Shown one piece after another: positions 3,526 through 35,844 of a DNA stretch of 64,000 nucleotides. Source of the DNA: a virus; the IMG/VR virus record IMGVR_UViG_3300042895_001344, positions 153,143-217,142 of that record. One strand, written 5' to 3'. The position numbers were made by a program, and so were the translations under genes. Position 1 is the stretch's first letter. The number at the start of each line of letters is the position of its first letter. Below the pieces are notes generated by a model, which saw only the letters and a program-made list of their open reading frames with translations, ran no database searches and was not told the origin of the DNA.

Positions 3526-3532
3526 TATGTTA

Positions 3533-3540
3533 TATAAATA
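3533..3540 (-). promoter_or_regulatory. Late-type box TATTTATA
   Basis: TATTTATA on the minus strand, 7 nt before the ATG of the 992-residue fibre gene. The upstream context (ATAGACA, then an A-rich stretch) matches the box at 503. Confidence 0.55.
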
Positions 3541-3567
3541 CTTTTATTTTCTGTCTATTTTAATTTT

Positions 3568-4989
3568 TTAGTGTAATCTTTCTATTGAAATAAAGTTATT
3601 AAGATAAGTGTCACCGATTATCAAAATAATTCTATATACTCTATTGTTTGTATCATCTCTTAAAATGTAGGTAGATGTATCACCTTGTCCAGTAAAGTTC
3701 CAATTAAACATTGATGCAGTTGCGGTTGTTGATAATGAAGTTGAACTAACACTTCCCGATGAAGAACCTCCAAAAGCTTGATAATGTGCCGAAATAAATC
3801 CTGTAACAGTATCAGATACTGTTGCGACACTCAACCCCCTATTACCGCTTGATGTTAGAGTTGCTTTAATATTATCTAATGTTACAAATGTTCCAGCATT
3901 TACTATTCCACTTGATTTACACGTCAATTCACCACTAACGCCGGCGGGTGACTTACTTAAATCAAGATATACACCTCTTGCACCTCCACCTTGTTCAAAA
4001 ATTCTTAATCTATTTTGATAAGAATCAATTGTAATTCCACTACCTGTAAGTGAGTTGTTTGTTTGTGATTTTGCTAATAAAATTTCTCCACCTTCATCAC
4101 CACTTCCAGTTCCAATTTGTAATGCAGTTGTTATTATATTCATTGAACCACTTATTATTACCGAACCTGTAATATTTTGAGTTGTTGAAATTGAACCTGT
4201 TGTAATTAAACCCGTATAACTAACAACTCCACTAGTTCCTGATGAACCATTAGAACCCGATGTTCCACTACTACCATTAGAACCTGATGTACCACTTGTA
4301 CCTGACCAACCATTTATTTGGGTTACCATCATAAAACACTGATTTGTGCTAAACCCACCAGTTGAATTACTAAAAGTACTTCTTAGGGCTACTTGTGTCG
4401 TTCCTGTTGTGACAATAATTGCCTCCGCCAATGGTTGCCAAGCTGCAGGAGCGACACTATTAACAACTATTACACCTGCTAGATTTCCTATTAAAGTATT
4501 ACTTGTGGTTACATTTATCCATTGATATTGTGTTTCAGCATTGTTTATATTATTTGCCAATGCAAAACTAGCATTAAGTTTATATGTCTTATTTGCTGCT
4601 AAGGTTATAATACCCGTAGATTGATTATAAGATACCGAACCATTTGATATTGTGGTACCCGATAATATAAAATTATTTCCCGTTGATGGTATGGTTGCAG
4701 TTGATGGTGTAAAATATAACCAATCATTGTCTACGTAACCTGATGTTCCCGATGACCCTGAACTACCGTTTGAACCTGACGAACCCGAAGAACCGTTAGA
4801 CCCCGATGTTCCCGATGAACCGGCAGTTCCTGAAGAACCTAAATCAAGAAATGGTTGACTTGATACCAAATCTTCAATTGATATGCGATTTGATGTGTAC
4901 CCACTACCGCTGGTTGAGGATATCATTAATATATCATCAATTTTTACGGAACCCGTACTAGTTAATTCTGAAACTTTTATTAGTGCCAT
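3568..4989 (-). CDS. Fibre-like virion protein with collagen-like Gly-Ser-Thr repeats
   Basis: A 473-residue protein. The start (MALIKVSELTSTGSVKIDDILMI) resembles fibre attachment segments. Two repeat blocks of GSSGTSG/GSNGSSG units lie near residues 50-85 and 228-252 and separate beta-rich domains. Such repeats usually mark trimeric, flexible phage fibre shafts. The C-terminal domain (roughly 255-473) is Gly/Ser/Thr-rich with no recognisable enzyme motif. The gene sits between two Pro-Thr linker genes on the same strand. Fibre function is inferred from composition and position. Confidence 0.6.
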   Translation of the reverse strand: MALIKVSELTSTGSVKIDDILMISSTSGSGYTSNRISIEDLVSSQPFLDLGSSGTAGSSGTSGSNGSSGSSGSNGSSGSSGTSGYVDNDWLYFTPSTATIPSTGNNFILSGTTISNGSVSYNQSTGIITLAANKTYKLNASFALANNINNAETQYQWINVTTSNTLIGNLAGVIVVNSVAPAAWQPLAEAIIVTTGTTQVALRSTFSNSTGGFSTNQCFMMVTQINGWSGTSGTSGSNGSSGTSGSNGSSGTSGVVSYTGLITTGSISTTQNITGSVIISGSMNIITTALQIGTGSGDEGGEILLAKSQTNNSLTGSGITIDSYQNRLRIFEQGGGARGVYLDLSKSPAGVSGELTCKSSGIVNAGTFVTLDNIKATLTSSGNRGLSVATVSDTVTGFISAHYQAFGGSSSGSVSSTSLSTTATASMFNWNFTGQGDTSTYILRDDTNNRVYRIILIIGDTYLNNFISIERLH

Positions 4990-5013
4990 TTTTATTTATA
5001 TTTTTATAATTTT

Positions 5014-5337
5014 TTATTCAGGTATTAGTATGTTTCCATTTTCATCTGAAATTATGTAAACACCGTTTTCGGTTATTATACCAAACTCATTCGGAGTTGG
5101 ACTTGGTGTATTTGTTATTGTAGGAGTTGGTGTAGGTGTAATTGTTGGAGTGGCAGTTGGTGGAACAGGGGTAGATGTTGGCGTTGGTGTTGGTGTATCT
5201 GTTGGTACCGGTGTTGGTGTACTTGTAGCTGGTAAAGGTGTATCGGTAATTGACGGCGTCGGCGTAGGTGTCCCCGTTGGTGGGGATGTTTGGTTTTTTG
5301 GGACTAAAATGAATTTACCGTTTATCTGCCAAGACAT
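5014..5337 (-). CDS. Short Pro-Thr repeat protein
   Basis: A 107-residue protein: a short N-terminal segment ([16 protein letters not shown]), about 65 residues of [14 protein letters not shown] repeats, and a short C-terminal beta-like segment ([18 protein letters not shown]). It looks like a linker flanked by two small caps and shares its repeat with both neighbouring genes. It may be a small fibre tip or a remnant of a larger fibre gene reduced by recombination. No function can be assigned. Confidence 0.55.
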
Positions 5338-5362
5338 ACATTAAATATTTTGTTTTATGAAA

Positions 5363-7090
5363 TTATATTGGTGTAGGGGTTGGAGTTGGTAAAGTATTCT
5401 GATCTACGAATCCAAAACAAACCGTACAATAGTTTTCTGTTTCAGTGTAATTAAAACTTACGCTACTTACCGTACCATCTATACGGATAATATTAAACCC
5501 TTCAATTCCTGTAAATTGAGTATATTGAGTTCCATTTACTGGGTTTTGGTATGTTGTATCTAGTTCCCAAATTGGTGTGAATGGTGCGGAAACGATAACC
5601 GGAACGGATGTAATTGAATTACCCACACTAGCAAAGGCAATCAAAGGATTTGTAACTGGTTGACTAAATGTTGCGGTAAACACACCCATCGATGTATTTC
5701 GTATTTGAGTTCCACTAACCGGAACATTATATTCTTGAGGGAACGTTGTACCCTCATACATACCTGAACTCTGTATTCCCATACCACCTACACTTTGTGT
5801 AACTGCAATAGTAATACCATTTTGACCTATACCTGATGCGGTTGAATCGGTAACTGAGTTAATAGTCATCCATTGAAATCCTAAACTTACAGGTGTTGCT
5901 GTAGGTGTAACAGTTGGCGTAGGAGTTGGACTTGGTGTCGATGTAGGAACCGGAGTTGGTGAAGGTGTTACTGTTGGTGTTGCCGTTGGTGGAACATATG
6001 CTCTCACGTCATCAACACAAGGTGCATTACATATTTCAAAAGTATATCCTGTTAATGTTCTAAAATTATGTTTAACGTGAATAAAATCTAATGGTTCTTC
6101 ATAATATAATGCCGATTTAATATTAAACCCACATGTTTTTGATGTATTACCAAAATAAGTGTAGTTATATCCTCCACCCCAAGATTGTATTAAAGTTTGT
6201 TCGTCTCTATATGACGGTATAATCTCTTCCCAATTAGTTTCGGTATAAATTAAATTACCATTTAAATAAAACTTTAAATCACCCAATCTCATATCTCTTT
6301 GTTCCGCCCATTTTTTATTTAATTCTTCAACATACTCAGTTGTAATTGTACCACCCGTAACCCAATCTTCTATTGTATTGGTAATTGTGTATCCTGTTGT
6401 GATTTGTGTTGATGTCATTGCGGTGACACCTGTTAATGGTTTAATAAATTCTACCGCATGTGGACCTCTAATTAAATTGTTAAATCCACCCACATTATCC
6501 AAATCACAATCTGTAAATTCTTTATATCTATTAAAAACTATCGTTAAATTAAAATCACTCGTATTTCCTGTTACACATAATACAGGTGTTTGACCATTTA
6601 AAAGACTATGTGTCTCAGTATAACCCGTAGTATTACAATAACCTGAATAATGATATGAAACCCACTTTACCCTACCATCATTTGTAAATTGAAATGATAA
6701 GTTATTATCCAAATAATTTGTATATGTAGTATCACCATCAACCCCGATATAGTAAAAAATCGTACCTCCAGACCAATTTACTGAGTTTCTATTGAATACA
6801 AAATCCAACGTCCAACCCTTTTCTGTTCTTCTTCTAACCGTAAAATCACAGGTATCTCCCGTGTAACGACTAGCAACCGGAACAACCCATGGTTTCTGAT
6901 CGTTTAAAGGTGTGGTTAAACAACTTGAGTCAATTGTAAGAGCACTATATGTGATTGGGGTAGTTAAATCTAACACATCTGTATCGTAATCAACCTCATT
7001 TGTGGTTAATTGATAGTCATAAAGTTCCGATGAATCTAACTTCAAATCCAATTTAGATCCGTAATAGTTTAAAATATTCTGTCTATTCAT
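5363..7090 (-). CDS. Structural/fibre-like protein with one Pro-Thr linker
   Basis: About 575 residues from the chosen start MNRQNILNYYG. An in-frame ATG at 7111 exists, but the 7090 start sits 5 nt after a TATTTATA box, as in many genes here. The N-terminal ~370 residues (FTVRRRTEKGWTLDFVFNR, FYYIGVDG, LRLGDLKFYLNGNLIY-like elements) look like a jelly-roll/lectin-like beta domain. A Pro-Thr linker near 375-405 joins a second beta domain, and a TPTPTP tail ends the protein. Domain order suits a tail or fibre component. It is divergent from the plus-strand block starting at 7144. Confidence 0.55.
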   Translation of the reverse strand: MNRQNILNYYGSKLDLKLDSSELYDYQLTTNEVDYDTDVLDLTTPITYSALTIDSSCLTTPLNDQKPWVVPVASRYTGDTCDFTVRRRTEKGWTLDFVFNRNSVNWSGGTIFYYIGVDGDTTYTNYLDNNLSFQFTNDGRVKWVSYHYSGYCNTTGYTETHSLLNGQTPVLCVTGNTSDFNLTIVFNRYKEFTDCDLDNVGGFNNLIRGPHAVEFIKPLTGVTAMTSTQITTGYTITNTIEDWVTGGTITTEYVEELNKKWAEQRDMRLGDLKFYLNGNLIYTETNWEEIIPSYRDEQTLIQSWGGGYNYTYFGNTSKTCGFNIKSALYYEEPLDFIHVKHNFRTLTGYTFEICNAPCVDDVRAYVPPTATPTVTPSPTPVPTSTPSPTPTPTVTPTATPVSLGFQWMTINSVTDSTASGIGQNGITIAVTQSVGGMGIQSSGMYEGTTFPQEYNVPVSGTQIRNTSMGVFTATFSQPVTNPLIAFASVGNSITSVPVIVSAPFTPIWELDTTYQNPVNGTQYTQFTGIEGFNIIRIDGTVSSVSFNYTETENYCTVCFGFVDQNTLPTPTPTPI

Positions 7091-7095
7091 TATAA

Positions 7096-7103
7096 TATAA
7101 ATA
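7096..7103 (-). promoter_or_regulatory. Late-type box TATTTATA
   Basis: TATTTATA on the minus strand, 5 nt before the ATG at 7090. It is the reason for preferring that start over the upstream ATG at 7111. Confidence 0.5.
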
Positions 7104-7120
7104 TCTTTCATAACATTTGA

Positions 7121-7143: not shown

Positions 7144-7893
7144 ATGAATAATTTTATAAAACAGGTAATTGAGGAGAAATTTGCTTCAAAAGCACAACAA
7201 AGGTTCTTCTACGCTAAGGCGAATGAAAAGGGTAAACCCAAGAAAGAAAAGAAGAAATGGTCTAAATGGGCTAAGGAGTTCTCCGATAAAACAGATTATG
7301 ATGAAATCCCCGATAAAGTAGAGAAAGAGGAAGAAGTAGATGAAATCGTGGACGGTGCCGGTAATTTTGCTAAAAGTAAAAAACCAACTAACTCAAGAGC
7401 TGAAGTAACATCAAATTCAACAACTGATGAATTTGTATTAACAGGAGCGGGTCAATCGTCTATATCACCAAAATTAGGTATGGGTTTTAGAAGATATTGG
7501 GGTGAGTCTGATATGAGTAAAGCATTAGGTGCTGAAGATACAATTATGGATGATGCTAATTATGAAGAAGCTAAAAAGAAATTTATTGAGTTGGGTGTAA
7601 CTGACCCAAAGGAATTGGAAGATAGATTAGGACAAATGGGATATGATCCAAAATTACCAGACGATAAGGTGAGATTGGTAGAAAACCCTAAAAAATTCAT
7701 GGAAGAATACATAGATAATCTTTTAAAACAAAAAGGAAAAGATAATGATGTATTACCCAAAGAAGAAGAGGTTGAGGAGATTGAAATCAATCCAATAGTT
7801 GTAAAACAAATAAAATCACTTAAAAATAGTATGAAAACTTATGGTCTTAAACCAGACCATATTTTGAAAGGACTTAAAGACGATAATGAATAA
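7144..7893 (+). CDS. Virion-associated hypothetical protein with N-terminal tag
   Basis: A 249-residue charged protein. It begins MNNFIKQVIEEKFASKAQQRFFYAKAN, an amphipathic tag containing I-E-E followed by a Lys-rich SKAQQRFFY/KKWAKEFS region of a style widespread in large phages. The middle is acidic and Ser/Thr-rich; the C-terminus has an acidic coiled region and a final helical segment (KSLKNSMKTYGLKPDHILKG). No catalytic motif is seen. It overlaps the next gene by 8 nt. A structural or capsid-internal role is inferred from tag and position. Confidence 0.6.
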   Translation: MNNFIKQVIEEKFASKAQQRFFYAKANEKGKPKKEKKKWSKWAKEFSDKTDYDEIPDKVEKEEEVDEIVDGAGNFAKSKKPTNSRAEVTSNSTTDEFVLTGAGQSSISPKLGMGFRRYWGESDMSKALGAEDTIMDDANYEEAKKKFIELGVTDPKELEDRLGQMGYDPKLPDDKVRLVENPKKFMEEYIDNLLKQKGKDNDVLPKEEEVEEIEINPIVVKQIKSLKNSMKTYGLKPDHILKGLKDDNE

Positions 7894-8377
7894 AGAGTTA
7901 AAAAATAGGGACTTTGATTTACCACAGAACATTTTAGATAAGATCAACCACACGGTTACAGGTCTTAACGGTCAAAATGTGCATGGGGTAATGAGAGCAA
8001 AAAAACTTTTAACCGATAAAAAAGTAACATATGGTCAACTTAAACGTATTATTCATGACATACAAGGTATGGATAAAGTTGCTGATAAAATTAGGTATGA
8101 CTTGGCTGGTGGTGATTTAATGGATACGTGGTCAAAACAATATCTTCAGGGTGAGAGAGATTTAATTCAAAATAGAAAAGAAGGTAGAAAACAGGCTGAT
8201 GATATTTCAAGTACAACGGGAGAAAGAAAAAATAGTTTCTTAACGAAACATACAAAAAAATCAAGTTGGTTACCGTCATTTAAATTTAATTCTAATTCAG
8301 AAAAAAATTCAGTGGCGTCAATAAAATTAACAGGTTTATTTGAACAAGTTAATAGAATAAAAAAATTAATGTTATAA
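7886..8377 (+). CDS. Hypothetical protein, helical, possible virion component
   Basis: A 163-residue basic, mostly helical protein. The N-terminal ~85 residues (DLPQNILDKIN ... GVMRAKKLLTDKKVTYGQLKRIIHDI) read as a compact helical domain. The C-terminus is Ser/Lys-rich and ends FEQVNRIKKLML, a helix similar to ends or starts of other proteins here (NIKRLMFS, RIKQMMISEE). It overlaps the upstream gene and is 1 nt from the downstream one, so the three are probably co-translated. Function is unknown. Confidence 0.55.
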   Translation: MNKELKNRDFDLPQNILDKINHTVTGLNGQNVHGVMRAKKLLTDKKVTYGQLKRIIHDIQGMDKVADKIRYDLAGGDLMDTWSKQYLQGERDLIQNRKEGRKQADDISSTTGERKNSFLTKHTKKSSWLPSFKFNSNSEKNSVASIKLTGLFEQVNRIKKLML

Positions 8378-8378
8378 T

Positions 8379-9071
8379 ATGGCAACAAAATTAGATCAAA
8401 TATCAGAACAGTTTAGAAAAGAATCTATTACAAGAAATTCTTATAACGAAAAGAATTTATATAATAGTCAAAATATTAATGCATTATCTAACGGAGATGA
8501 AAAAGGTAAAGGTCAAATTGGTGACAGCGATAAAATCGGTTCAACCACTGACATTCAAAATAGAATTTCAAGTTTAGGTAGAAACACTTACAATGAAAAT
8601 AATCAATATAGTTTAACTAATCCAAATGCATTAGCAGATGGAGATGAAAAAGGAAGAGGTCAAAAAGAAGATAATGTTGCAATTGGAACATCTGTAGATA
8701 TTGCAAATAGAAATTTATTATTAAGTAAAAACACATATAAATTAAATAATAAATATGGTGTTAACAATCCTAATGCAATGTCCGACGGTGATGAAAAAGG
8801 TAAGGGACAAAAAGGTGAAACAGGTGAGGTTGGTTCAAGAACTGACGTGTTAAAAAGAACTGAAAATTTAGTAAAAAATAAGTTTAATAAAAAGAATTTA
8901 TATAATAGTACAAATCCTGATGCAATTTCTGACGGAGATGAAAATGGTAAAGGACCTAAAGATGAAAATGGAACTGTTGGTTCTAAAACTGATATTTTAA
9001 AAAGAACCGAAAATACTGGTAAGAATAGTTATAACTCTAAAAAAGAATATAATAGACATCCAACAGAATAA
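8379..9071 (+). CDS. Four-fold tandem-repeat protein (DGDEKGKG repeats)
   Basis: A 230-residue protein made almost wholly of four ~48-residue repeats. Each has the pattern N-x-YN-x-x-N-x-Y, NPNA-x-SDGDEKGKGQ, then G-S-x-TDI-x-x-R. Repeats start near residues 20, 69, 118 and 167, and a partial unit closes the protein. The acidic DGDE(K/N)GKG loop recurs in each unit and could bind cations, but it does not match a canonical EF-hand. The stop overlaps the next start (TAATG). Within the virion-like block it may be a repetitive structural or capsid-internal protein. The family is not recognised. Confidence 0.6.
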   Translation: MATKLDQISEQFRKESITRNSYNEKNLYNSQNINALSNGDEKGKGQIGDSDKIGSTTDIQNRISSLGRNTYNENNQYSLTNPNALADGDEKGRGQKEDNVAIGTSVDIANRNLLLSKNTYKLNNKYGVNNPNAMSDGDEKGKGQKGETGEVGSRTDVLKRTENLVKNKFNKKNLYNSTNPDAISDGDENGKGPKDENGTVGSKTDILKRTENTGKNSYNSKKEYNRHPTE

Positions 9072-9820
9072 TGAGTTTTACAAATACAATCTTCAAAATA
9101 CTTGAAGAACAAAATATTTTAAGGACATCAAAAACTAAACCTATAGTTGATTCAATCAAAAATAGGAATAAGATTTCTTTTTTTTATACTGGTCCAAGAA
9201 AACCTGCAAAAGATAGTGTTAAACCTGGTAAAAGAATTGATGCCGAAGCAGTGGCTTTAGGGTTAAGTAAAAGAGGTAATTTAGTTATTCGTGCATATGT
9301 CCAACCACCTTCAGTATCCAAAAAAGGATTTGATAAAACAGGTTGGAGAACTTTTATGGTTAGTAGAATGAGTGATTTAAGAATTAGCGATGAAAAATTT
9401 GATCAGAAGAGACCCGACTATAAAGAAGGTGATGATAAATCAATGAGTGTTACTTACGTAACAACAGATTGGACAAATAAACCTGAGGTTAAGAAACCAA
9501 GGATTGTTAAACCAAAACCAAGTGTCCCTTCGGCAACTGCAACAACTCAATCAACTCCAAGTGTTGACCCGACAACAACAACTACACCTGAGGAACCAAA
9601 AACAACAGAACTACCACAACCAAAAACTCAAACTAAACCTGAGAAAGTTGTACCAAAACCTGAACCAACAAAAACAGAACCTGAAACAACAGAACCTAAA
9701 ACACAAGAATTACCTCAACCAAAACAAACAGAAAAACCAGTTGCAAATCCTGAAGAGGATGAGGAAAATAAAAATTTACAAGAAAGTATTAAAAATATTA
9801 AGCGTTTAATGTTTTCTTAA
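9071..9820 (+). CDS. WYL-like beta domain with Pro-rich tail
   Basis: A 249-residue protein. The tag-like N-terminus (MSFTNTIFKILEEQNIL, with I-L-E) is followed by a domain at about 24-120 (IKNRNKISFFYTGP, GLSKRGNLVIRAYV, GWRTFMVSRMSDLRIS). That order of elements resembles the WYL fold used as a ligand-sensing module in bacterial regulators. Residues ~145-230 are a low-complexity Pro/Thr/Glu/Lys tail. The C-terminus (ESIKNIKRLMFS) is a short helix. No DNA-binding domain is present, so a classical regulator is unlikely. The WYL call is by eye. Confidence 0.5.
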   Translation: MSFTNTIFKILEEQNILRTSKTKPIVDSIKNRNKISFFYTGPRKPAKDSVKPGKRIDAEAVALGLSKRGNLVIRAYVQPPSVSKKGFDKTGWRTFMVSRMSDLRISDEKFDQKRPDYKEGDDKSMSVTYVTTDWTNKPEVKKPRIVKPKPSVPSATATTQSTPSVDPTTTTTPEEPKTTELPQPKTQTKPEKVVPKPEPTKTEPETTEPKTQELPQPKQTEKPVANPEEDEENKNLQESIKNIKRLMFS

Positions 9821-22527: not shown

Positions 22528-23181
22528 ATGAAAGTAATTAAACTAAAAGAAAACGATCTTAGAAAATATATTGCTAAGATTATAAAGGAAAATCAATCAA
22601 CCGAAAACTATATGTTTTTCAGTAATTTACAACAAATACATAGACAATGTGAGATGTTGATGAAAATGGATCCACAAGAGTTAGATCAAATTATTAAAAA
22701 CGGTCACGATTGGGCGGACGATCATGTATCTGAAGCTAAGAACAATATGGATCAAGTTTTTGATTTCTTTATGAATGAAACTAAAAGTAAAGATAAACAA
22801 GATGTTACTGCCGATATGGATCAGTTTAGTATGAACGAAGAAGGACAACTTGACGAAAAATGTTGGGATGGGTATAAACAAGTTGGTAGTAAGAAAAAAG
22901 GTGGAAAAATGGTACCGAATTGTGTACCTGTAAGTGAAGCAAGTAGTCCTGCACAACAAGCTGCAATTGCAATCAATATGAAGAAAAAGGGTGTTGAACC
23001 TAAAAATGAGTCATACGGTGAAATAGACGAAAGTAAGAACTGTCCAACAGACCCTGCGAAGTGGGCAGCATCAAAGGCTAAAGCTAAATCTAAATTTGAC
23101 GTCTATCCTTCAGCATATGCAAATGGATTCGCGGCGAAAGATTATAAAGCAAAAGGTGGTGGTTGGAGAAAATGTAAATAG
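22528..23181 (+). CDS. Mosaic tagged protein with DUF5872-like C-terminus
   Basis: A 217-residue mosaic. Residues 1-21 are a tag (MKVIKLKENDLRKYI, with L-K-E). An acidic helical part follows. A Cys segment (KCWDGYKQVGSKKKGGKMVPNC, residues ~111-132, split here for length) is of a style common in large phages. SPAQQAAIAINMKKKG follows. The end (WAASKAKAKSKFDVYPSAYANG, then AKGGGWRKCK) matches the layout of DUF5872, seen in large viruses and phages. It is a probable virion-internal protein. The next ATG follows the stop directly. Confidence 0.6.
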   Translation: MKVIKLKENDLRKYIAKIIKENQSTENYMFFSNLQQIHRQCEMLMKMDPQELDQIIKNGHDWADDHVSEAKNNMDQVFDFFMNETKSKDKQDVTADMDQFSMNEEGQLDEKCWDGYKQVGSKKKGGKMVPNCVPVSEASSPAQQAAIAINMKKKGVEPKNESYGEIDESKNCPTDPAKWAASKAKAKSKFDVYPSAYANGFAAKDYKAKGGGWRKCK

Positions 23182-23943
23182 ATGAATTTAGAAGAGAACA
23201 TACAAAGAATTAAACAAATGATGATTTCTGAGGAGATGGTACAATCTGATGCTTGGAAGTCTTTAAAGAAGACATTAGATGTTCTTAAAAAGAAGAAAAA
23301 AGTTTTACTATTAAGTTGTTCTAATAGACACAATTGGGACGAAAATGATATTGATATACCAAAATCTAAAATGATTGCGATGTATCTTAACGAAGAATTA
23401 GGTGACAAATCCGTTTTAATAGATGTACCTGAACTTAAGATATTTCCTTGTGAAGGTAACGTATCAAGAAAAGACGGAGATTCATGTGGAGTATTAAAAT
23501 CTAAACTTGAAGACAAGGACAAAAATCCTTCAGGTCATCATAGATGTTGGGCAAGTATAAACAACAAATCAGATGAACTTTGGAAAATATCTAAAGAACT
23601 ATTTGAATCGGACGCGGTTATATTTTTTAGTTCAATAAGGTGGGGACAGACAAATATGTATTATCAAAATCTAATTGAAAGACTTAATTGGATTGAAAAT
23701 AGACATACAACACAAAATGAATCAAACATAGTAAAAGATATTGAATCTGGATATATTTGTACGGGACATAATTGGAATGGAAGTAACGTTGTTGATCTAC
23801 AAAAACAAGTTCATTCATTTTATGGATTCAAACCAAACGATGATATATATTGGAATTGGCAGTATACTAAAGATATTAACGACGAAAGTCAAAAATCATA
23901 TAAAGATTCTCATGATAAATTCATAAAAGACACTAAATTATAA
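23182..23943 (+). CDS. Flavodoxin-fold NAD(P)H:FMN reductase-like enzyme with tag
   Basis: A 253-residue protein. The N-terminal tag (NIQRIKQMMISEE, with I-S-E) precedes a flavodoxin-like core: VLLLSCSNRHN at the phosphate-binding loop position, VLIDVPELKIFPCEGNVSRKDG, and DAVIFFSSIRWGQTNMYYQNLIERL (the usual W-G-x-x-x-x-x flavin region). The pattern resembles NADPH-dependent FMN reductase or iron-sulfur flavoprotein relatives. A Cys-rich middle (PCEGNVS, DSCGV, HHRCW) could bind a metal. Adjacent to a pterin dehydratase. The substrate is not identifiable. Confidence 0.65.
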   Translation: MNLEENIQRIKQMMISEEMVQSDAWKSLKKTLDVLKKKKKVLLLSCSNRHNWDENDIDIPKSKMIAMYLNEELGDKSVLIDVPELKIFPCEGNVSRKDGDSCGVLKSKLEDKDKNPSGHHRCWASINNKSDELWKISKELFESDAVIFFSSIRWGQTNMYYQNLIERLNWIENRHTTQNESNIVKDIESGYICTGHNWNGSNVVDLQKQVHSFYGFKPNDDIYWNWQYTKDINDESQKSYKDSHDKFIKDTKL

Positions 23944-23944
23944 T

Positions 23945-24223
23945 ATGAGAATAATAATAACCGAAGACCAAAAAAATAAAATTATGAATAGTAATGATTG
24001 GGTGGAAACAAACGGTAAATTAATTAAAACATTTTATTTTAAAGATTATAAGGAAGTTATGTCATTTGCTAATGAGGTGATGAAAATTGCCAACAAACAA
24101 AATCATCACCCCGATATGACGGTTCATTATGATAATGTAAAGTTATCAATTACAGACCACGATAAGGGTAAGGTGTCCGATAAGTGTCATAAATTTGTTA
24201 ATGAGGTAAATAAAATTATATAA
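23945..24223 (+). CDS. Pterin-4a-carbinolamine dehydratase-like enzyme with tag
   Basis: A 92-residue protein. After a tag (MRIIITEDQKNKI, with I-T-E), the sequence matches the PCD/DCoH family: HHPDMTVHYDNV (54-65), with H54-H55-P56 as the active-site motif and H72/D73 after the fixed spacing. PCD dehydrates 4a-hydroxytetrahydrobiopterin to regenerate the cofactor, and small PCD folds also act as transcription dimerisation partners. A phage copy in a late structural block is unusual. The length is close to that of single-domain PCDs, with the tag replacing the normal N-terminus. Confidence 0.8.
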   Translation: MRIIITEDQKNKIMNSNDWVETNGKLIKTFYFKDYKEVMSFANEVMKIANKQNHHPDMTVHYDNVKLSITDHDKGKVSDKCHKFVNEVNKII

Positions 24224-24224
24224 C

Positions 24225-24977
24225 ATGAAAATTATTGTTTCAAAGGAAGATAAAGAATATATAAACGAATGTCTTAAATCAGGTGAGGTTTTAAAAGAAG
24301 ATCTTACAAGGTGGTTTAAAGAGAAGTGGGTAGATGTTAGTAAAAAGGTAGATGGTAAACACCCACCTTGTGGTAGAAAAGATGCTGATGGTAAATCGTA
24401 TCCTAAATGTAGACCTTCTAAAAAAGTGTCTAAAGAAACTCCAAAAGTTGCCTCTTCATATGATAAAAAAGAAAAGAAAGCAATGACTTCACAAAAAAGA
24501 AGAGCAGAAAAGAAAGACCCTAAAGTGGGTAAGGGTAATAAACCAACAATGACTAAATTTGATGAGAATATGGAAAAGAGAACAATAATTCAAATATCTG
24601 AAGATCAATTCGAAAGACTATTTGAATACAACGAAGAAACTCCTGTATTGATATATGAGGATGAGTTTGGATCAATAGAAAATACTAAATTTGAATACGA
24701 CTTAGGTCTTTTAAATGAGGCTGAGTATCAAGGACGTAAAGTTCAACTTGGTAAAATCATGCAAGGGGACGTAAAGAAATCAAAAGTTTATGTTAAGAAC
24801 GATAAAGGTAAAGTCGTTAAAGTAAACTTTGGTTTTGGTGGTAAATCCGCTAAAGGTAAACGAATGGTTATTAAGAAAAATAACCCTGCAAGACGTAAAT
24901 CATTTAGAGCACGTATGAATTGTGATAATCCAGGTCCTCGTTGGAAACCAAGATATTGGGCTTGTAGAACTTGGTAA
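24225..24977 (+). CDS. Mosaic tagged basic protein (DUF6321-like plus CRTW motif)
   Basis: A 250-residue protein with two tags: the N-terminus (MKIIVSKEDKEYINECL) and an internal copy near residue 117 (RTIIQISEDQFERLFEY, with I-S-E). Between them, DLTRWFKEKWVDVSKKVDG, PPCGRKDADGKSYPKCRPSKK and KKAMTSQKRRAEKK resemble the DUF6321 domain found in large viruses. The C-terminal motif (FRARMNCDNPGPRWKPRYWA, then CRTW) is Cys/Trp-rich. A strongly basic protein of this kind could bind DNA inside the capsid. It converges end to end with the following minus-strand gene. Confidence 0.6.
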   Translation: MKIIVSKEDKEYINECLKSGEVLKEDLTRWFKEKWVDVSKKVDGKHPPCGRKDADGKSYPKCRPSKKVSKETPKVASSYDKKEKKAMTSQKRRAEKKDPKVGKGNKPTMTKFDENMEKRTIIQISEDQFERLFEYNEETPVLIYEDEFGSIENTKFEYDLGLLNEAEYQGRKVQLGKIMQGDVKKSKVYVKNDKGKVVKVNFGFGGKSAKGKRMVIKKNNPARRKSFRARMNCDNPGPRWKPRYWACRTW

Positions 24978-25361: not shown

Positions 25362-27119
25362 TTATCTTAATGTATCTAAACCAAACACTTGGATACCTTG
25401 TACATCGATTACACCGAAGTAACGGTTGTTCACCATTTTCTTTGCGTAACGTGTCATGATACCTTTGATTGGAGTCATGTTGAATGGATTGTACATTGTA
25501 GGAGTTAATTGTAATGGCACATATGGTGCGTATACATAACCTGCATCTAACAATGATTTTCCTTTATGACCGATCAAGATTTTGTTAGCTGGGAAGTAAG
25601 GATCACGATACACTTGGTAACGACCACCTACTGTACCGATTTTCTCGATACCCATGTTATATTGATCTTGTTCTGGTTCTGCGTTAGAAACGTGGAAATA
25701 CTCTAAATCATCGAATACTGCAGAAACTTCTGAAGAAACAACGATCCAGTTAGCACCACCTCTTAACGTAGTTTTGTGGATTTGAGCAGAAATTTGGTTG
25801 ATTTTTGTAACCAAAGTTTGGTTCCAATCTTTTTGAGTGTAACCTTGTAAAGTTGAGTTTCCAGATCCACCGTATTTCCATCCATTGTAATCCCATTTAG
25901 CTTTCCATGCTGCACCTTTACGTAAGTCACGTAAGATTTCACGGTCAACCTCAGCAGCGATTTGCTCTGATAATAAAGCTGTCAATTCAGCTTCAGCGTC
26001 GATGTTGTGGAACGCACTAACATCTTGTGCTAATTCTGGAGACCAGCTAGCTCTTAATTTTCTTTCAGTTACAGAAACTGTTACTGATTCTAAATCAAAA
26101 GATACTTCACCAATTTGATCTTCAAACTCCAAAGTATCGTACTTGCGATAAGAAGCGTTGAATTCTGTTCTTGCTAAAGTTGAACCTGTTACTTCGTAAT
26201 CAGAAAAACCCGAAGTTGGGTCGTATTTTTGTAAATCTACTTGTACATAGATTTTACCGTCAGTATCACAAATATCGTAGAAATTTTGTGTTGCGTTAGT
26301 TGTTTTAGCACCGTATTCTACAATACCTTTACCGTACTTTTGAGTAACGATATTGATTGGTAATGAAGTACCTGTAGTTGCACCTAAGAAAGCTAATAAG
26401 TTAGCATCTGAAGTGAAAACTTGTAATGAAGCTAAGAATTCTTCAGAATCCATTTCATTACCGTCTGGTCCTTTCAATTTACCTGCACCTGCAGATTCAA
26501 ATCCTTCTAATTCTAAAATTACATAAGATTTAGTTGTACCGGTATTAATAGCAGATGTACTTGTAGTAACTTCACCGTTAGAGAAAGTTGTGAAACCATT
26601 TACAGTTAATGCGCTAACAGAATAAGCACCTTTTGAATAATCAAAAAGACCTTGTTCTAAGTCGTCATTAGCTTCGTAGAAACGATCGTAAAGATTCTTA
26701 GCACCTGTATTATAACCTGCTGTTGCAGCGTCAGAGTTACCTGGCATACCGTAAGGAGAGTAATGACCGTTAGCGTCAGTTCTCTCTTGGATTTTAGGTA
26801 CGAAGAAGAACAATTTACCGATTGGTAAGTTCATAGCTTGTACAGACACGATGTCGTTAGCTAATAATTTAGAGAATACACGACGAATGATAGGGAAAAC
26901 TACAGTCTCGAAAGAACCAGACGCATCAGCTACTGCTGCTTCGTTGATTAAGTAAGACGCTTGGTTTTCATACAATTGCGCGATGTTATCTTTTTGGTGA
27001 CCACCAAGACCCTCTAAGAATCCTAATTCGTCCCATTTTTTAATGGTATCTTCTTTGATAACTCTAAGGTGCTTAAGACCTATGTTACCAACCATACCGC
27101 TTTCTAATAATGCTCCCAT
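25362..27119 (-). CDS. Major capsid protein, T4 gp23-like
   Basis: A 585-residue capsid protein of the HK97/gp23 type. Residues ~61-100 (SGSFETVVFPIIRRVFSKLL, then VSVQAMNLPIGKLFFF) match the gp23 N-arm region after processing, close to T4's SGAVTQ...VRRAIPNL...VQPMNSPTG. The sequence YLINEAA around residue 60 fits the prohead protease site I-x-E, giving a predicted mature N-terminus at residue 61 (T4 cuts after 65). It is preceded by the scaffold and protease genes and followed by a strong terminator, the usual T4 order. Confidence 0.9.
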   Translation of the reverse strand: MGALLESGMVGNIGLKHLRVIKEDTIKKWDELGFLEGLGGHQKDNIAQLYENQASYLINEAAVADASGSFETVVFPIIRRVFSKLLANDIVSVQAMNLPIGKLFFFVPKIQERTDANGHYSPYGMPGNSDAATAGYNTGAKNLYDRFYEANDDLEQGLFDYSKGAYSVSALTVNGFTTFSNGEVTTSTSAINTGTTKSYVILELEGFESAGAGKLKGPDGNEMDSEEFLASLQVFTSDANLLAFLGATTGTSLPINIVTQKYGKGIVEYGAKTTNATQNFYDICDTDGKIYVQVDLQKYDPTSGFSDYEVTGSTLARTEFNASYRKYDTLEFEDQIGEVSFDLESVTVSVTERKLRASWSPELAQDVSAFHNIDAEAELTALLSEQIAAEVDREILRDLRKGAAWKAKWDYNGWKYGGSGNSTLQGYTQKDWNQTLVTKINQISAQIHKTTLRGGANWIVVSSEVSAVFDDLEYFHVSNAEPEQDQYNMGIEKIGTVGGRYQVYRDPYFPANKILIGHKGKSLLDAGYVYAPYVPLQLTPTMYNPFNMTPIKGIMTRYAKKMVNNRYFGVIDVQGIQVFGLDTLR

Positions 27120-27141: not shown

Positions 27142-28440
27142 TTATTTTATTTTTCTCATCATTTCTTTAATTCTACTGAATTGAGGATTTTCATAAGCTT
27201 TTGACTCAGATAATACCTCTGTAGAAGAAGATGTTGATGGAGTGTTAGAGATTTTTTTCGCAACTGATTCGGTAACCGTAGTTTTTGAACCTAATTCAGT
27301 TTTGATTGTTGAGAATAAAGACTTAGCTTCATTCATAGTAGAAACTGTATCAAATCTCTTTAATATATTCAATTTCTCTTGTTTTGTAGTTGAATGTTCA
27401 GTAAACAAACGTGTAGCGTAAGCTAAGTTTGCATTGAATACTGCAACTTCATTTAGTTTATCCTTGAATAATACTAACGCCTTTTTATATTCAGCATTTT
27501 GTTTTTTCAATGTTTCAACTTGTTCGTTGATACCTGAACCCGCTTTGTACATTTTTTTAGATGGTAAACCAGCTCTTTTCATACCGTTCTTGTTTCCATG
27601 AGGGTTTGATTTTGTACGTGCAGCTTCTGTAGCTTCAACTTTTTTAGGTTCTTCAACCTCGTCTTCCTCGTCTAATTCGATTTCATAGATAGTTTCTTCG
27701 TCAGCTTCTAATTCGTCTTCAGCATCAACATCTTCCATATCGGTTTCTGTATCAACATCAGATTCTAAATCAGAATCAACGTCTGTATCCATTCCACTCA
27801 TATCAACGTCGGAATCAACGTCAGAATCAACATCTGTATCTAAGTCAGCTCCCATGTCCATTCCAGTATCAAGATCAGAATCTTCACTATCTAATTTGAT
27901 AATGTATTCATTTTCTCCGTCACCGAATTCGACATTGTTACCGTCTTTTTTAACTACAATACCATCTTCTGGTTTCATAGCCTTGAATACTTTAAGAACT
28001 TCATCGTCTGAAGCACCTGTCATATCCATAACGTCTTCATCATCCATTGAACCTTCGTCACTCATAGATTCCATATCAGTACCCATATCGGTACCCATGT
28101 CATCCATGTCAACATCAGTGTCAACATCCGAATCAACGTCATCTGTTGAGTCTAAGTTATCGAGGTCTGTATCTGTATCAACATCTGTATCAACGTCTTC
28201 TTCAGATTCATCATCTGTGTCTTCGTCGTCAGCTGTTACATCTTGTTCTGCCTCTTCTTCAGGTTTAGCAACTTCTTCATCAGTTGTTGTTTCTTCCTCT
28301 TCTTCCAATGATTCTTTTAGCAAATCTTTAAGTTCTTCCTTCATTGTTGAAGCAAGTATACCTTTTGCATTTTGCTTTACGGCCTCTTCAAGATTTTGTA
28401 CTTGAAGTAACGCTTGTTCTAAAATTGATTTTTCGCTCAT
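27142..28440 (-). CDS. Acidic prohead core scaffold, gp22-like
   Basis: A 432-residue protein with a very acidic middle (VDTDVD/SDVDMS repeats, D/E/S/T-rich) and helical ends. The C-terminal region (YKKALVLFKDKLNEVAVFNANLAYATRLFTEHS) is of the type seen in phage scaffold proteins. Its place between protease and capsid gene and its charge fit the gp22 prohead core, which is later proteolysed. The end SRIKEMMRKIK resembles the helical ends of other proteins in the window. Confidence 0.75.
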   Translation of the reverse strand: MSEKSILEQALLQVQNLEEAVKQNAKGILASTMKEELKDLLKESLEEEEETTTDEEVAKPEEEAEQDVTADDEDTDDESEEDVDTDVDTDTDLDNLDSTDDVDSDVDTDVDMDDMGTDMGTDMESMSDEGSMDDEDVMDMTGASDDEVLKVFKAMKPEDGIVVKKDGNNVEFGDGENEYIIKLDSEDSDLDTGMDMGADLDTDVDSDVDSDVDMSGMDTDVDSDLESDVDTETDMEDVDAEDELEADEETIYEIELDEEDEVEEPKKVEATEAARTKSNPHGNKNGMKRAGLPSKKMYKAGSGINEQVETLKKQNAEYKKALVLFKDKLNEVAVFNANLAYATRLFTEHSTTKQEKLNILKRFDTVSTMNEAKSLFSTIKTELGSKTTVTESVAKKISNTPSTSSSTEVLSESKAYENPQFSRIKEMMRKIK

Positions 28441-28529: not shown

Positions 28530-29213
28530 TTATTTAGATAGAAATGTATCTAAATTGCCCATAAGTTTAGACATTCTACTGTCAAGTGTTGGTTTCTTAA
28601 TTTCCGCTTCTTGATATTGGTCTCTTTCTGATGGGTCTTTAAAAATATAAGCACCGGGAGTTGATGGTGATGATACTAAATCAAAACAAACTAATTCGAA
28701 ATCATCTTGTACGATGTTTTCTCCTTTAACTTGTTTAAGTGATCCTACACCACGTGAAGAGATACCTAAAGTTGCCCCGTTCATTAATAACATCGCAGCT
28801 TGATCTCCTTTGGTTGAAACGATACCCATCTTCTTCCATCCAGGAGAAGTGAATAACTTGATTTTACCCATAAGGATTCTACCGTCCCACCAAGTTTCTA
28901 AAATTGAATGTGATACTCGATCTAAATCGATTAGTGAAGATGAAGGGTGATTTAATTCATTTAATGCTCCACCCTTTTTAATTAGTGATTGATATTTTTC
29001 GTTTTCTCTCTTAAGTAACATTTCAGGATATATCCTTCCGTTCTTATTTGGAGTATCGAATTTTTGTAAAACAGCATAAAGGATTAGATCTTCAGAGAAG
29101 TCCACACCCTTCATTTCCTGTATAATTTTTTTATTCTCTTCTGGAGATACGTGTCCTGCGTCGTATTCTATTAAAATTCCTGTTCCAAGTTCTTTGGGTC
29201 CTAATATCTTCAT
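28530..29213 (-). CDS. Prohead protease, T4 gp21-like
   Basis: A 227-residue serine protease of the gp21 family that matures the prohead by cutting after I/L-x-E. The signature regions are present: DTPNKNGRIYP (53-63), ALNELNHPSS with H89, GKIKLFTSPGW, and LGISSRGVGSL with S152/S153. The DDFELVCFDLVSSPSTPGA end follows. It sits upstream of scaffold and capsid genes as in T4. Its cut-site preference gives a test for the N-terminal tags described elsewhere in this window. Confidence 0.88.
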   Translation of the reverse strand: MKILGPKELGTGILIEYDAGHVSPEENKKIIQEMKGVDFSEDLILYAVLQKFDTPNKNGRIYPEMLLKRENEKYQSLIKKGGALNELNHPSSSLIDLDRVSHSILETWWDGRILMGKIKLFTSPGWKKMGIVSTKGDQAAMLLMNGATLGISSRGVGSLKQVKGENIVQDDFELVCFDLVSSPSTPGAYIFKDPSERDQYQEAEIKKPTLDSRMSKLMGNLDTFLSK

Positions 29214-29779: not shown

Positions 29780-29971
29780 ATGATTATTATAGACTTATCT
29801 AAAGAAAAAAGTATTGAGACAGCGTTAAGAACTTATAAACAAAAAGTTCAAAAAACAAAGCAAGTTCAAAAATTGAGGGAAAGACAACAGTTCGTAAAAC
29901 CTTCCGTTAAAAAAAGAACTGAAAAATTAAAAGCAGTTTATTTACAACAAAAAAGAAATGGACTTAGTTAA
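29780..29971 (+). CDS. rpsU: Ribosomal protein bS21
   Basis: A 63-residue bS21 homologue: MIIIDLSKEKSIETALRTYK, then RERQQFVKPSVKKRTEKLKA and a basic end. The length and order (beta start, basic helix, KPSV turn, RR/KR helix) are those of bacterial bS21. In Bacteroidota, bS21 helps hide the anti-Shine-Dalgarno sequence of 16S rRNA, so a phage copy could change which mRNAs ribosomes prefer. No Shine-Dalgarno precedes this gene. It is the only plus-strand gene between 24977 and 40379, and its 3' end is a shared terminator palindrome. Confidence 0.9.
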   Translation: MIIIDLSKEKSIETALRTYKQKVQKTKQVQKLRERQQFVKPSVKKRTEKLKAVYLQQKRNGLS

Positions 29972-34425: not shown

Positions 34426-35844
34426 TTATTTCGTAGGTCTGTCTAACCCTAACTCGTCAAATAGACTGTCATCATCATCTTCTTCATCATTACCACCACT
34501 TGGTAAATCAACACCTAAATTATTTAAAAAACCCTTTAATTCATCGTTATCAGTTTCATCACTTATACCTGTTAAGTCCTCGTCAAATTCCGCCATCGTT
34601 TGTTCGTAATCGTAATTGTTGATGTCCTCTTCAATTGCACGAACCAATGTTTCCATTAAACGATTTCCATTCTCAGAATTAGAAACTATTTCTTTCATGA
34701 ATACTAAGAATTCCTTTGCTGGTTTTTTGAATATATGTTGGAATACCATTAATTGAATAATTCCTTTATCTTCATCTGTCAATACATCTTCAGGGAATTT
34801 AGATCTAATTCTATCCCAAATTGCAGGTCCTAAACGTAAATCCCACATTTCTTTTTCCAATGTATCTTCACTATCTTCAATTGCTGTAAAGTCTTCTTCA
34901 TTACCTTCTTCATCTCTTTTTCTACCTTGTAATGCAACTAACTCTAAAGTTCCTTTAATCAATTCGTGTATTAAAACTGGAAAGTTTACTGCTCTTGCTT
35001 TAACTGTCGGTGGATCAGTTTGTCTATCAACATCTTCTCTACCTGCAATATTACCAGCTTGACCCATTGCTTTCATGGTATCATTAGGTAATTGCCAATA
35101 TAATGCGTCGTTTACTGACATCATAATTCCGTAAAGACCAACAAGCCTGTCGTTACCAACAATTTGACTAATTCTCTCTTCAGCGTAATGATACATGTAA
35201 TGACCTCTTTTAGATGCACCTTGTATAATTGTATTTATAAATCTTCTTTTTGCTTTTTCTAAGTCAAGTTTCTCTAAATCATTAACGATTTCAATTTCGT
35301 TACCAAAATTCATTTCTTCTTCACCACCTTCTTCTTCACCACCTTCTTCTTCACCACCTTCTTCTTCACCTTCTTGGTCGTGATTAAAATCTTCAGGGTT
35401 GAATTCCCCCATACCAATAATTTTTGCATCATATTGAACTGACCCTTCAGGAATACCTAATTCCTTCATAACTAATTCAATCGCTAACGCTTCTAATTCT
35501 CCTCTGTGGTTTTGTTCAAACTGTAAGATTTGGTTGTGAGCACTCATCATTTGTTGCATCAATGGAGACATACCTTGTGTACCTCTAATAGTGGCATTTG
35601 TACCGGTATATTGTCTCATTTTAGCAACAACTTGTCTATATCTTTCTGAAGCTAATAGTTCTTGGAAGTTCTTGTTAGGTTCATCCCCTGTTTCAGGGAA
35701 AGGTATTTTTTGCAATGGGGTTTCTCCCGCAGCTAAATCATCTTGTACCCCTTGGTCAGGTCTATCCTGACTATCAAAATCCATTGGCATTTCATTCAAA
35801 TTTTCTTGAATTAAAGATAAGAGTTTTTTCTTAGAAAATTGCAT
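34426..35844 (-). CDS. Accessory head protein with tag and EEEGG repeats
   Basis: A 472-residue protein. The start (MQFSKKKLLSLIQENLNEM) is tag-like, with I-Q-E and L-N-E. Residues ~160-180 hold three EEEGGEEEGG-type acidic repeats. The middle is helical (YHYAEERISQIVGNDRLVGLYG, PVLIHELIKGTLELVALQ) and resembles head-associated proteins of large T4-like phages. The end is acidic. No catalytic motif. Function unknown; virion location is likely. Confidence 0.6.
   Translation of the reverse strand: MQFSKKKLLSLIQENLNEMPMDFDSQDRPDQGVQDDLAAGETPLQKIPFPETGDEPNKNFQELLASERYRQVVAKMRQYTGTNATIRGTQGMSPLMQQMMSAHNQILQFEQNHRGELEALAIELVMKELGIPEGSVQYDAKIIGMGEFNPEDFNHDQEGEEEGGEEEGGEEEGGEEEMNFGNEIEIVNDLEKLDLEKAKRRFINTIIQGASKRGHYMYHYAEERISQIVGNDRLVGLYGIMMSVNDALYWQLPNDTMKAMGQAGNIAGREDVDRQTDPPTVKARAVNFPVLIHELIKGTLELVALQGRKRDEEGNEEDFTAIEDSEDTLEKEMWDLRLGPAIWDRIRSKFPEDVLTDEDKGIIQLMVFQHIFKKPAKEFLVFMKEIVSNSENGNRLMETLVRAIEEDINNYDYEQTMAEFDEDLTGISDETDNDELKGFLNNLGVDLPSGGNDEEDDDDSLFDELGLDRPTK

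What the first reader, a model, noticed from the sequence alone, without database searches (positions are those of the whole stretch)
22528..24977. A shared short N-terminal tag on unrelated proteins, ending in I/L-x-E: possible capsid-targeting signal
Seen: unrelated proteins share short amphipathic starts: MKVIKLKENDLRKYI (22528), NIQRIKQMMISEE (23182), MRIIITEDQKNKI (23945), MKIIVSKEDKEYI plus an internal RTIIQISEDQFERLF (24225), MNNFIKQVIEEKFA (7144), MSFTNTIFKILEEQ (9071), MQFSKKKLLSLIQENLNEM (35844), MKRTELIGRLLKEG (37013), MNKFGVIKTKLLNKLTESY (30701). Nearly all contain I/L-x-E. Known: T4 gp21 cleaves after I/L-x-E, T4 internal proteins carry removable N-terminal capsid-targeting peptides, and a gp21-like protease is encoded at 28530. 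Inference: these tags route cargo into the prohead and are trimmed there, so the flavodoxin-fold reductase and pterin dehydratase would be delivered into the host with the DNA.
Basis: partly seen in the sequence, partly recalled or inferred. Interest (0 to 1): 0.82.

Follow-up and report, generated by a model that had tools for sequence, protein, structure and literature searches.

The report
Swappable capsid-packaging tags on phage proteins
Large uncultured T4-like phages put short, exchangeable end-tags on dozens of unrelated proteins, each tag ending at the cutting signal of the phage's own head protease, so one can predict from sequence alone which proteins are packed into the virus head and probably injected into the host.

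Summary
The listed peptides are in the window, but they are several different tags. Within this genome alone their similarity does not exceed chance. The case is made by relatives.

(1) A back-translated tag pattern (M-K-x-x-I-R-L-T-E-x-[DE]-L) hits at least 120 viral stretches; its codon-reversed control hits none. 85 tagged proteins fall into about 70 unrelated bodies. Conservation stops at a conserved [IL]-x-E.
(2) Tags are swapped on the same body while the [ILV]xE junction stays: 30/30 orthologs of the 22528 protein, 35/35 of 24225, 17/17 of 35844. In 35 reductases (23182), Glu17 is the only invariant residue of the first 39.
(3) [IL]xE is enriched at N-termini in phages with an I/L-x-E protease (z 2-8, T4 included; weakest 1.1), not in phiKZ or crAss001.
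(4) The same motif bounds the capsid protein's propeptide (76/76) and the scaffold's C-terminal peptide (74/74), which resembles the reductase tag.

Best reading: removable capsid-targeting peptides, as in T4 internal proteins, greatly multiplied and modular. The flavodoxin-fold reductase is a strong cargo candidate. The pterin dehydratase is not proven, because its "tag" overlaps its family's normal first helix. Cleavage, packaging and injection remain inferred.

The parts
22528..22590 (+). class A tag MKVIKLKENDLRKYIAKIIKE| of the 217-aa protein (ORF 22528-23181)
   Evidence: 46 orthologs found; 30 distinct N-terminal stretches, all with [ILVF]xE before the conserved body (shuffled 14.3+-2.7, max 22)
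23182..23232 (+). class B tag MNLEENIQRIKQMMISE| of the flavodoxin-fold reductase (ORF 23182-23943)
   Evidence: Glu17 only invariant residue among first 39 in 35 relatives; tag replaced in L555, L538, varied in L530, L546 with [IL]xE kept
23233..23940 (+). predicted mature reductase
   Evidence: AF2 model pLDDT 71.7; Foldseek best PDB matches are FMN quinone reductases (SP1951 1.7e-5, WrbA, AzoR) with modest TM scores; Pfam FMN_red only E 0.024 in 7/14
23945..24223 (+). pterin-4a-carbinolamine dehydratase; N-terminus MRIIITEDQKNKI is ambiguous (tag-like but part of the family's normal N-terminal region)
   Evidence: PF01329 4.8e-18 from residue 7; PDB relatives align from residue 5
24225..24299 (+). 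class A2 tag MKIIVSKEDKEYINECLKSGEVLKE| before a DUF5872-type domain
   Evidence: 35/35 distinct prefixes end [ILVF]xE|DLxRWF, shuffled 2.2 max 7; replaced by MIIDDTIKKILRE| in G025; DUF5872 7e-13
24576..24719 (+). internal tag-like stretch KRTIIQISEDQFERLF.. ending LLNE|AEYQG, upstream of a second domain (phrog_7595)
   Evidence: L[NQ]E|AEYQG in 38 of 49 family members; phrog_7595 1.1e-7 over residues 167-250
9071..9109 (+). N-terminal tag MSFTNTIFKILEE|
   Evidence: exchanged in orthologs..ILTNILTE|A (G001)..TDILEE|Q (G003)..KKLIVE|A (G025)
9776..9817 (+). C-terminal class B motif LQE|SIKNIKRLMFS of the same protein
8339..8374 (+). C-terminal class B motif FEQVNRIKKLML
7144..7176 (+). N-terminal tag MNNFIKQVIEE| before FASKAQQR
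   Evidence: 3/3 orthologs keep IxE there (few sequences)
35791..35844 (-). N-terminal tag MQFSKKKLLSLIQENLNE| before MPMDFD
   Evidence: 17/17 distinct prefixes end [ILV]xE at the junction, shuffled 2.3 max 9
25362..27119 (-). gp23-type major capsid protein with predicted processing site LINE60|A
   Evidence: PF07068 9.2e-73; INE|A/S at residue 60 in 76/76 relatives
27145..27204 (-). C-terminal peptide of the gp22-like scaffold, LSE|SKAYENPQFSRIKEMMRKIK, resembling the class B tag
   Evidence: [ILV]xE[SAT] before it in 74/74 relatives
28530..29213 (-). gp21-like prohead protease (Peptidase_S77); C-terminus also carries a DRMxKLM motif
   Evidence: PF03420 1.7e-22

Best explanation
The peptides are prohead-targeting propeptides of the T4 internal-protein type. 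A short amphipathic peptide at the N-terminus (for some proteins the C-terminus) binds the prohead core or inner shell and carries an unrelated cargo into the prohead. The S77 protease then cuts after [IL]-x-E and removes the tag, and the freed cargo is packaged with the DNA and probably injected. Shown by sequence: modular tag, swap between bodies, invariant [ILV]xE junction, protease in the genome, same site in MCP and scaffold. Inferred: binding partner, actual cleavage, presence in virions, injection.
For: Tag pattern >=120 viral stretches versus 0 for the codon-reversed control; 85 tagged proteins = 69-70 unrelated body clusters. Conservation 2.7 bits at E22 falls to 0.85 and 0.4 just after it; proteins with a 4-residue insert keep [IL]xE at 26. 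Tag swapping with invariant junction. [IL]xE N-terminal enrichment in G025, G003, G037, immuto and T4 (z 3.9-7.9), weak in G000/G001 (2.0) and MelJY01 (1.1), absent in phiKZ (-0.2) and crAss001 (0.4). MCP and scaffold sites 76/76 and 74/74. Tagged genes mostly accessory (p = 5e-5, 9e-4). T4 precedent: gp21 cuts after L/I-X-E, the first 10 residues of IPIII target it, Ip1-3 share only their leader (PMC9026906; PMC12373910).
Against: No virion data for any of these phages. In the window's own genome the statistical excess is small (z about 2). Some class A/B examples also sit inside or at the C-terminus of proteins, which fits targeting but not a purely N-terminal signal. The S77 link has a high base rate: 25/36 tag contigs versus 4/13 random contigs of 60-150 kb, p = 0.02; size-matched 16/26 versus 4/13, p = 0.10. 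The residue after the cut is often Q, N, E or D, unlike the Ala or Ser seen in T4 IPs and in the MCP here. Gene starts are from a home-made caller.
Confidence: 0.83

Rival explanations
1. The tags are docking helices that stay on the mature protein and attach accessory proteins to some phage assembly (head, tail or a replication compartment); the conserved Glu is a helix-end residue, not a protease site.
For: Tags look like capped amphipathic helices; some occupy internal or C-terminal positions.
Against: The junction motif is [IL]xE whatever the tag sequence or length, including the +4 insert; enrichment tracks protease specificity and is absent in phiKZ and crAss001; MCP and scaffold share the site.
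Confidence: 0.08
2. Chance and ordinary N-termini: AT-rich phage proteins often start with amphipathic helices rich in I, L, K and E.
For: Within the window's own genome pairwise similarity is not above chance and z is only about 2; true of the pterin dehydratase.
Against: Zero hits for the reversed pattern; decoy motifs not consistently enriched; swapping with invariant junction.
Confidence: 0.04
3. A nucleotide-level element: shared 5' ends serve as recombination seams or translation leaders.
For: Consecutive tagged genes in L170 suggest recent cassette duplication.
Against: Identical residues use different codons in 23% of cases within a locus and 42% between loci; unrelated peptides replace each other at the same junction.
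Confidence: 0.03

Closest known systems
T4 capsid targeting sequences (IPI, IPII, IPIII, Alt) with gp21 prohead protease
   Same: Short N-terminal peptide shared by unrelated, mostly accessory proteins; ends in L/I-x-E; S77 protease and gp23-type capsid in the same genome (PMC9026906, PMC12373910).
   Different: Different tag sequences; several classes per genome; tens of tagged genes rather than a few; same body with exchanged tags; one class shared by cargo and scaffold C-termini.
phiKZ / SPN3US head-protein propeptides
   Same: Propeptides removed after Glu by a gp21-related protease during head maturation (PMC9026906, PMC5694885).
   Different: phiKZ cuts at S/A-x-E, and several SPN3US propeptides are longer than 100 residues; no N-terminal [IL]xE excess in phiKZ.
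bS21-encoding Bacteroidetes myophages (PMC9723584)
   Same: Same genome neighbourhood: bS21 on the opposite strand between terminase, portal, prohead protease and MCP.
   Different: The passages searched there describe no tags; the paper only suggests that bS21 might be encapsidated.

Membership tests
T4-type capsid targeting sequence / internal protein | short N-terminal peptide shared by otherwise unrelated proteins | tested here: met
T4-type capsid targeting sequence / internal protein | peptide ends at L/I-x-E and the body follows | tested here: met
T4-type capsid targeting sequence / internal protein | gp21-type S77 protease in the same phage | tested here: met
   own genome; 9 of 10 tag contigs >200 kb, (base rate 4/13 random contigs)
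T4-type capsid targeting sequence / internal protein | MCP carries the same processing motif at its N-terminal domain boundary | tested here: met
   INE60|A/S in 76/76, (sequence only)
T4-type capsid targeting sequence / internal protein | carriers are variable accessory genes | tested here: met
T4-type capsid targeting sequence / internal protein | sequence homology to MKTYQEFIAE | not tested
   only compared by eye; T4 IPs recovered as positive control
T4-type capsid targeting sequence / internal protein | tag sufficient for packaging; cleaved in the prohead; protein injected | not testable with these tools
   needs virion proteomics and fusion assays
phiKZ-type S/A-x-E propeptides | N-terminal S/A-x-E excess | tested here: not met
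   [SA]xE z between -1.7 and 0.5 in G000, G001, G003, G025, G037
Pterin-4a-carbinolamine dehydratase (23945) | canonical PF01329 fold including the N-terminal region | tested here: met
Flavodoxin-like FMN reductase (23182) | flavodoxin-like fold / FMN_red profile | tested here: inconclusive
   Foldseek best hits are FMN reductases but TM scores are modest, about 0.34-0.55; Pfam E 0.024 only

The most novel reading that the evidence does not exclude
A terminus-independent, swappable address code: several tag classes per phage, one of them a mimic of the scaffold's and protease's C-terminal motif, load tens of different effectors into the head. Reading the tags would list the injected proteins of hundreds of uncultured T4-like and jumbo phages.
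Probability: 0.5. Interest if true: 0.85.

Novelty: new variant of a known kind. Interest (0 to 1): 0.74.

Why it matters
T4 internal proteins Ip1-3 are injected inhibitors of type IV restriction enzymes (PMC12373910), but such proteins have been found mainly within one phage group. Here a tag plus its [IL]xE junction flags candidate injected proteins across freshwater and rumen phages; 83 of 85 class A carriers have no Pfam match at E<=1e-3. It also explains why unrelated hypothetical genes share their first 20 residues, and it makes the question of what these phages inject directly testable.

Tried and rejected
A single universal tag: rejected, at least three classes. Pterin dehydratase as tagged cargo: not accepted, since its start is family fold. 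Significance from the window's genome alone: not reached. S77 co-occurrence as strong proof: weakened by the random-contig base rate. First AF2 model of the reductase (14 sequences) was poor, pLDDT 47.6; repeated with 35 sequences. tblastn of a 27-residue tag against named phages found nothing, too short or absent. Reductase against named phages: no match. Literature searches for the motif or for such tags in uncultured phages found no prior report in the held library; subscription papers are not held, so this is not proof of novelty.

Full report
Setting. The window is bases 153143-217142 of a 217-kb IMG/VR virus record. It carries a gp23-type capsid protein, a gp22-like scaffold, an S77 prohead protease, portal and terminase, with a bS21 gene on the opposite strand. 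This is the layout described for uncultured Bacteroidetes-infecting bS21 phages (PMC9723584). Hundreds of contigs carry a close capsid-protein relative; named cultured relatives are distant, among them Flavobacterium phage immuto, Microcystis phage Mel-JY01 and RM378.

The observation. The quoted peptides exist but belong to different classes. Within this genome alone shared N-termini are not above chance and N-terminal [IL]xE is only mildly enriched, z about 2. Two relatives change the picture. G003 has a cassette of unrelated genes starting MKRTIRLTESELTALVKKILNE, MKKIVKLTESDLTKLVKTIVEN, MRIVITERQLNNLI and so on. G025 has dozens.

Class A across viruses. A degenerate pattern for M-K-x-x-I-R-L-T-E-x-[DE]-L found at least 120 stretches in viral contigs, up to five consecutive genes. 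The codon-reversed pattern found none. In 257 Gb of prokaryote genomes it found 13, about ten of them real tags, mostly in rumen MAG contigs that may be phage; two Halobacillus hits are internal chance matches. The 85 distinct tagged proteins form 69-70 unrelated body clusters, and only two match Pfam. Positions 13-22 were not fixed by the pattern, yet they are conserved up to E22 and conservation collapses right after it. Eleven proteins carry four extra residues and keep [IL]xE at 26. Codons vary synonymously, so selection is on the peptide.

Swapping. The body of the 22528 protein is preceded in relatives by wholly different peptides: MKVIKLKENDLRKYIAKIIKE|, MKIVKLTESQLKKVVSNVIKE| (90% body identity), MKKIIISEDQLKKIIE| (91%), MKKIEDIIKIQLKNVIRE|, MNLNSIIKKVLKE|. 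All 30 distinct prefixes have [ILVF]xE close before the body; shuffled prefixes average 14.3, never above 22 in 2000 rounds. The same holds for 24225 (35/35, shuffled 2.2) and 35844 (17/17, shuffled 2.3). For the reductase at 23182, some relatives replace MNLEENIQRIKQMMISE| by MIKLTDLIKEMVLYE| or MISLTEIVREIMLNE|. In a 35-sequence alignment Glu17 is the only invariant residue before position 40. The AF2 model gives the tag low confidence and the following segment high confidence, and fold matches are FMN quinone reductases, with modest TM scores.

Link to the prohead. The capsid protein has INE60|A or S in 76/76 relatives. The scaffold ends in [ILV]xE|SKAYExPQFKRMKDLMSKIK (consensus) in 74/74, and the protease ends in a similar DRMKKLM motif. 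Class B tags (ENIxRIKxMM) resemble this scaffold peptide and occur at N- or C-termini of several unrelated proteins, rarely inside. This is suggestive of a common binding surface, not proof.

Protease specificity as a control. N-terminal [IL]xE excess: G025 7.9, G003 6.3, G037 (jumbo phage contig) 5.2, immuto 4.4, T4 3.9, G000 and G001 2.0, Mel-JY01 1.1; phiKZ, whose protease cuts S/A-x-E (PMC9026906), -0.2; crAss001, without a detectable S77, 0.4. The excess falls but persists without class A proteins. Nine of ten tag contigs above 200 kb carry both S77 and gp23, but S77 is also common in random large contigs (4/13 of 60-150 kb).

Which cargo. The reductase is a strong candidate. The pterin dehydratase is not: its start is normal for the family, although it also looks tag-like. 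The 24225 protein may be a two-module precursor with an internal tag and an LNE|A site. Tagged genes are mostly accessory, like T4 ip genes.

What is known. T4 gp21 cuts after L/I-X-E, and the first ten residues of IPIII suffice for packaging (PMC9026906). T4 Ip1-3 share only their leader and are injected restriction inhibitors (PMC12373910). What appears new is the scale, the several tag classes per phage, the swapping, and the C-terminal form. Cleavage, packaging and injection were not measured.

Noticed in passing
29780-29971 (+): Phage bS21 (PF01165) on the opposite strand among head genes. Its N-terminus carries no [IL]xE tag, so it is predicted not to be packaged by this route, which bears on a suggestion in PMC9723584.
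   Followed up: partly
24225-24977 (+): Looks like a two-module precursor: tag, DUF5872 domain, internal tag, LLNE|A site, then a phrog_7595 domain whose family profile is only 96 residues long.
   Followed up: partly
8379-9071 (+): Protein made of four ~45-residue repeats (NxYNxxNxYNSxNPNAxSDGDExGKGQ) between two tagged genes; weak T5orf172 match.
   Followed up: no
547-7111 (-): Tail-fibre-like proteins with long PTPTPTP repeats.
   Followed up: no
G000:C1:76162-77409 (outside the window): 415-aa protein with an N-terminal tag, an internal class A tag and a C-terminal class B motif together; orthologs in G001 and G003.
   Followed up: partly
L159:1596-2027, L168: Class A-tagged protein whose body contains GLGTDERAI, an annexin-like motif by eye.
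   Followed up: no
L255:8001-8819 (G025): MKIVITENQ-tagged phage lysozyme with LysM domain, a possible packaged lysin.
   Followed up: no
NC_055915 1803-2318, 102294-104354, 113188-113946, 117631-118931: Cultured Flavobacterium phage immuto has its own repeated tags (MENFDLKKFLVENKLTxNS.., MKKSQLRxIIKEAL), most of them near its terminase and capsid genes.
   Followed up: yes
G002 (L095-L107): Coding density only 0.59 with short ORFs; error-rich assembly or recoded stops.
   Followed up: no
L348 (ONBK01000001.1, 408 kb): Tag-bearing contig filed under a Bacteroidales MAG (RUG153), perhaps a jumbo phage binned with a bacterium.
   Followed up: no
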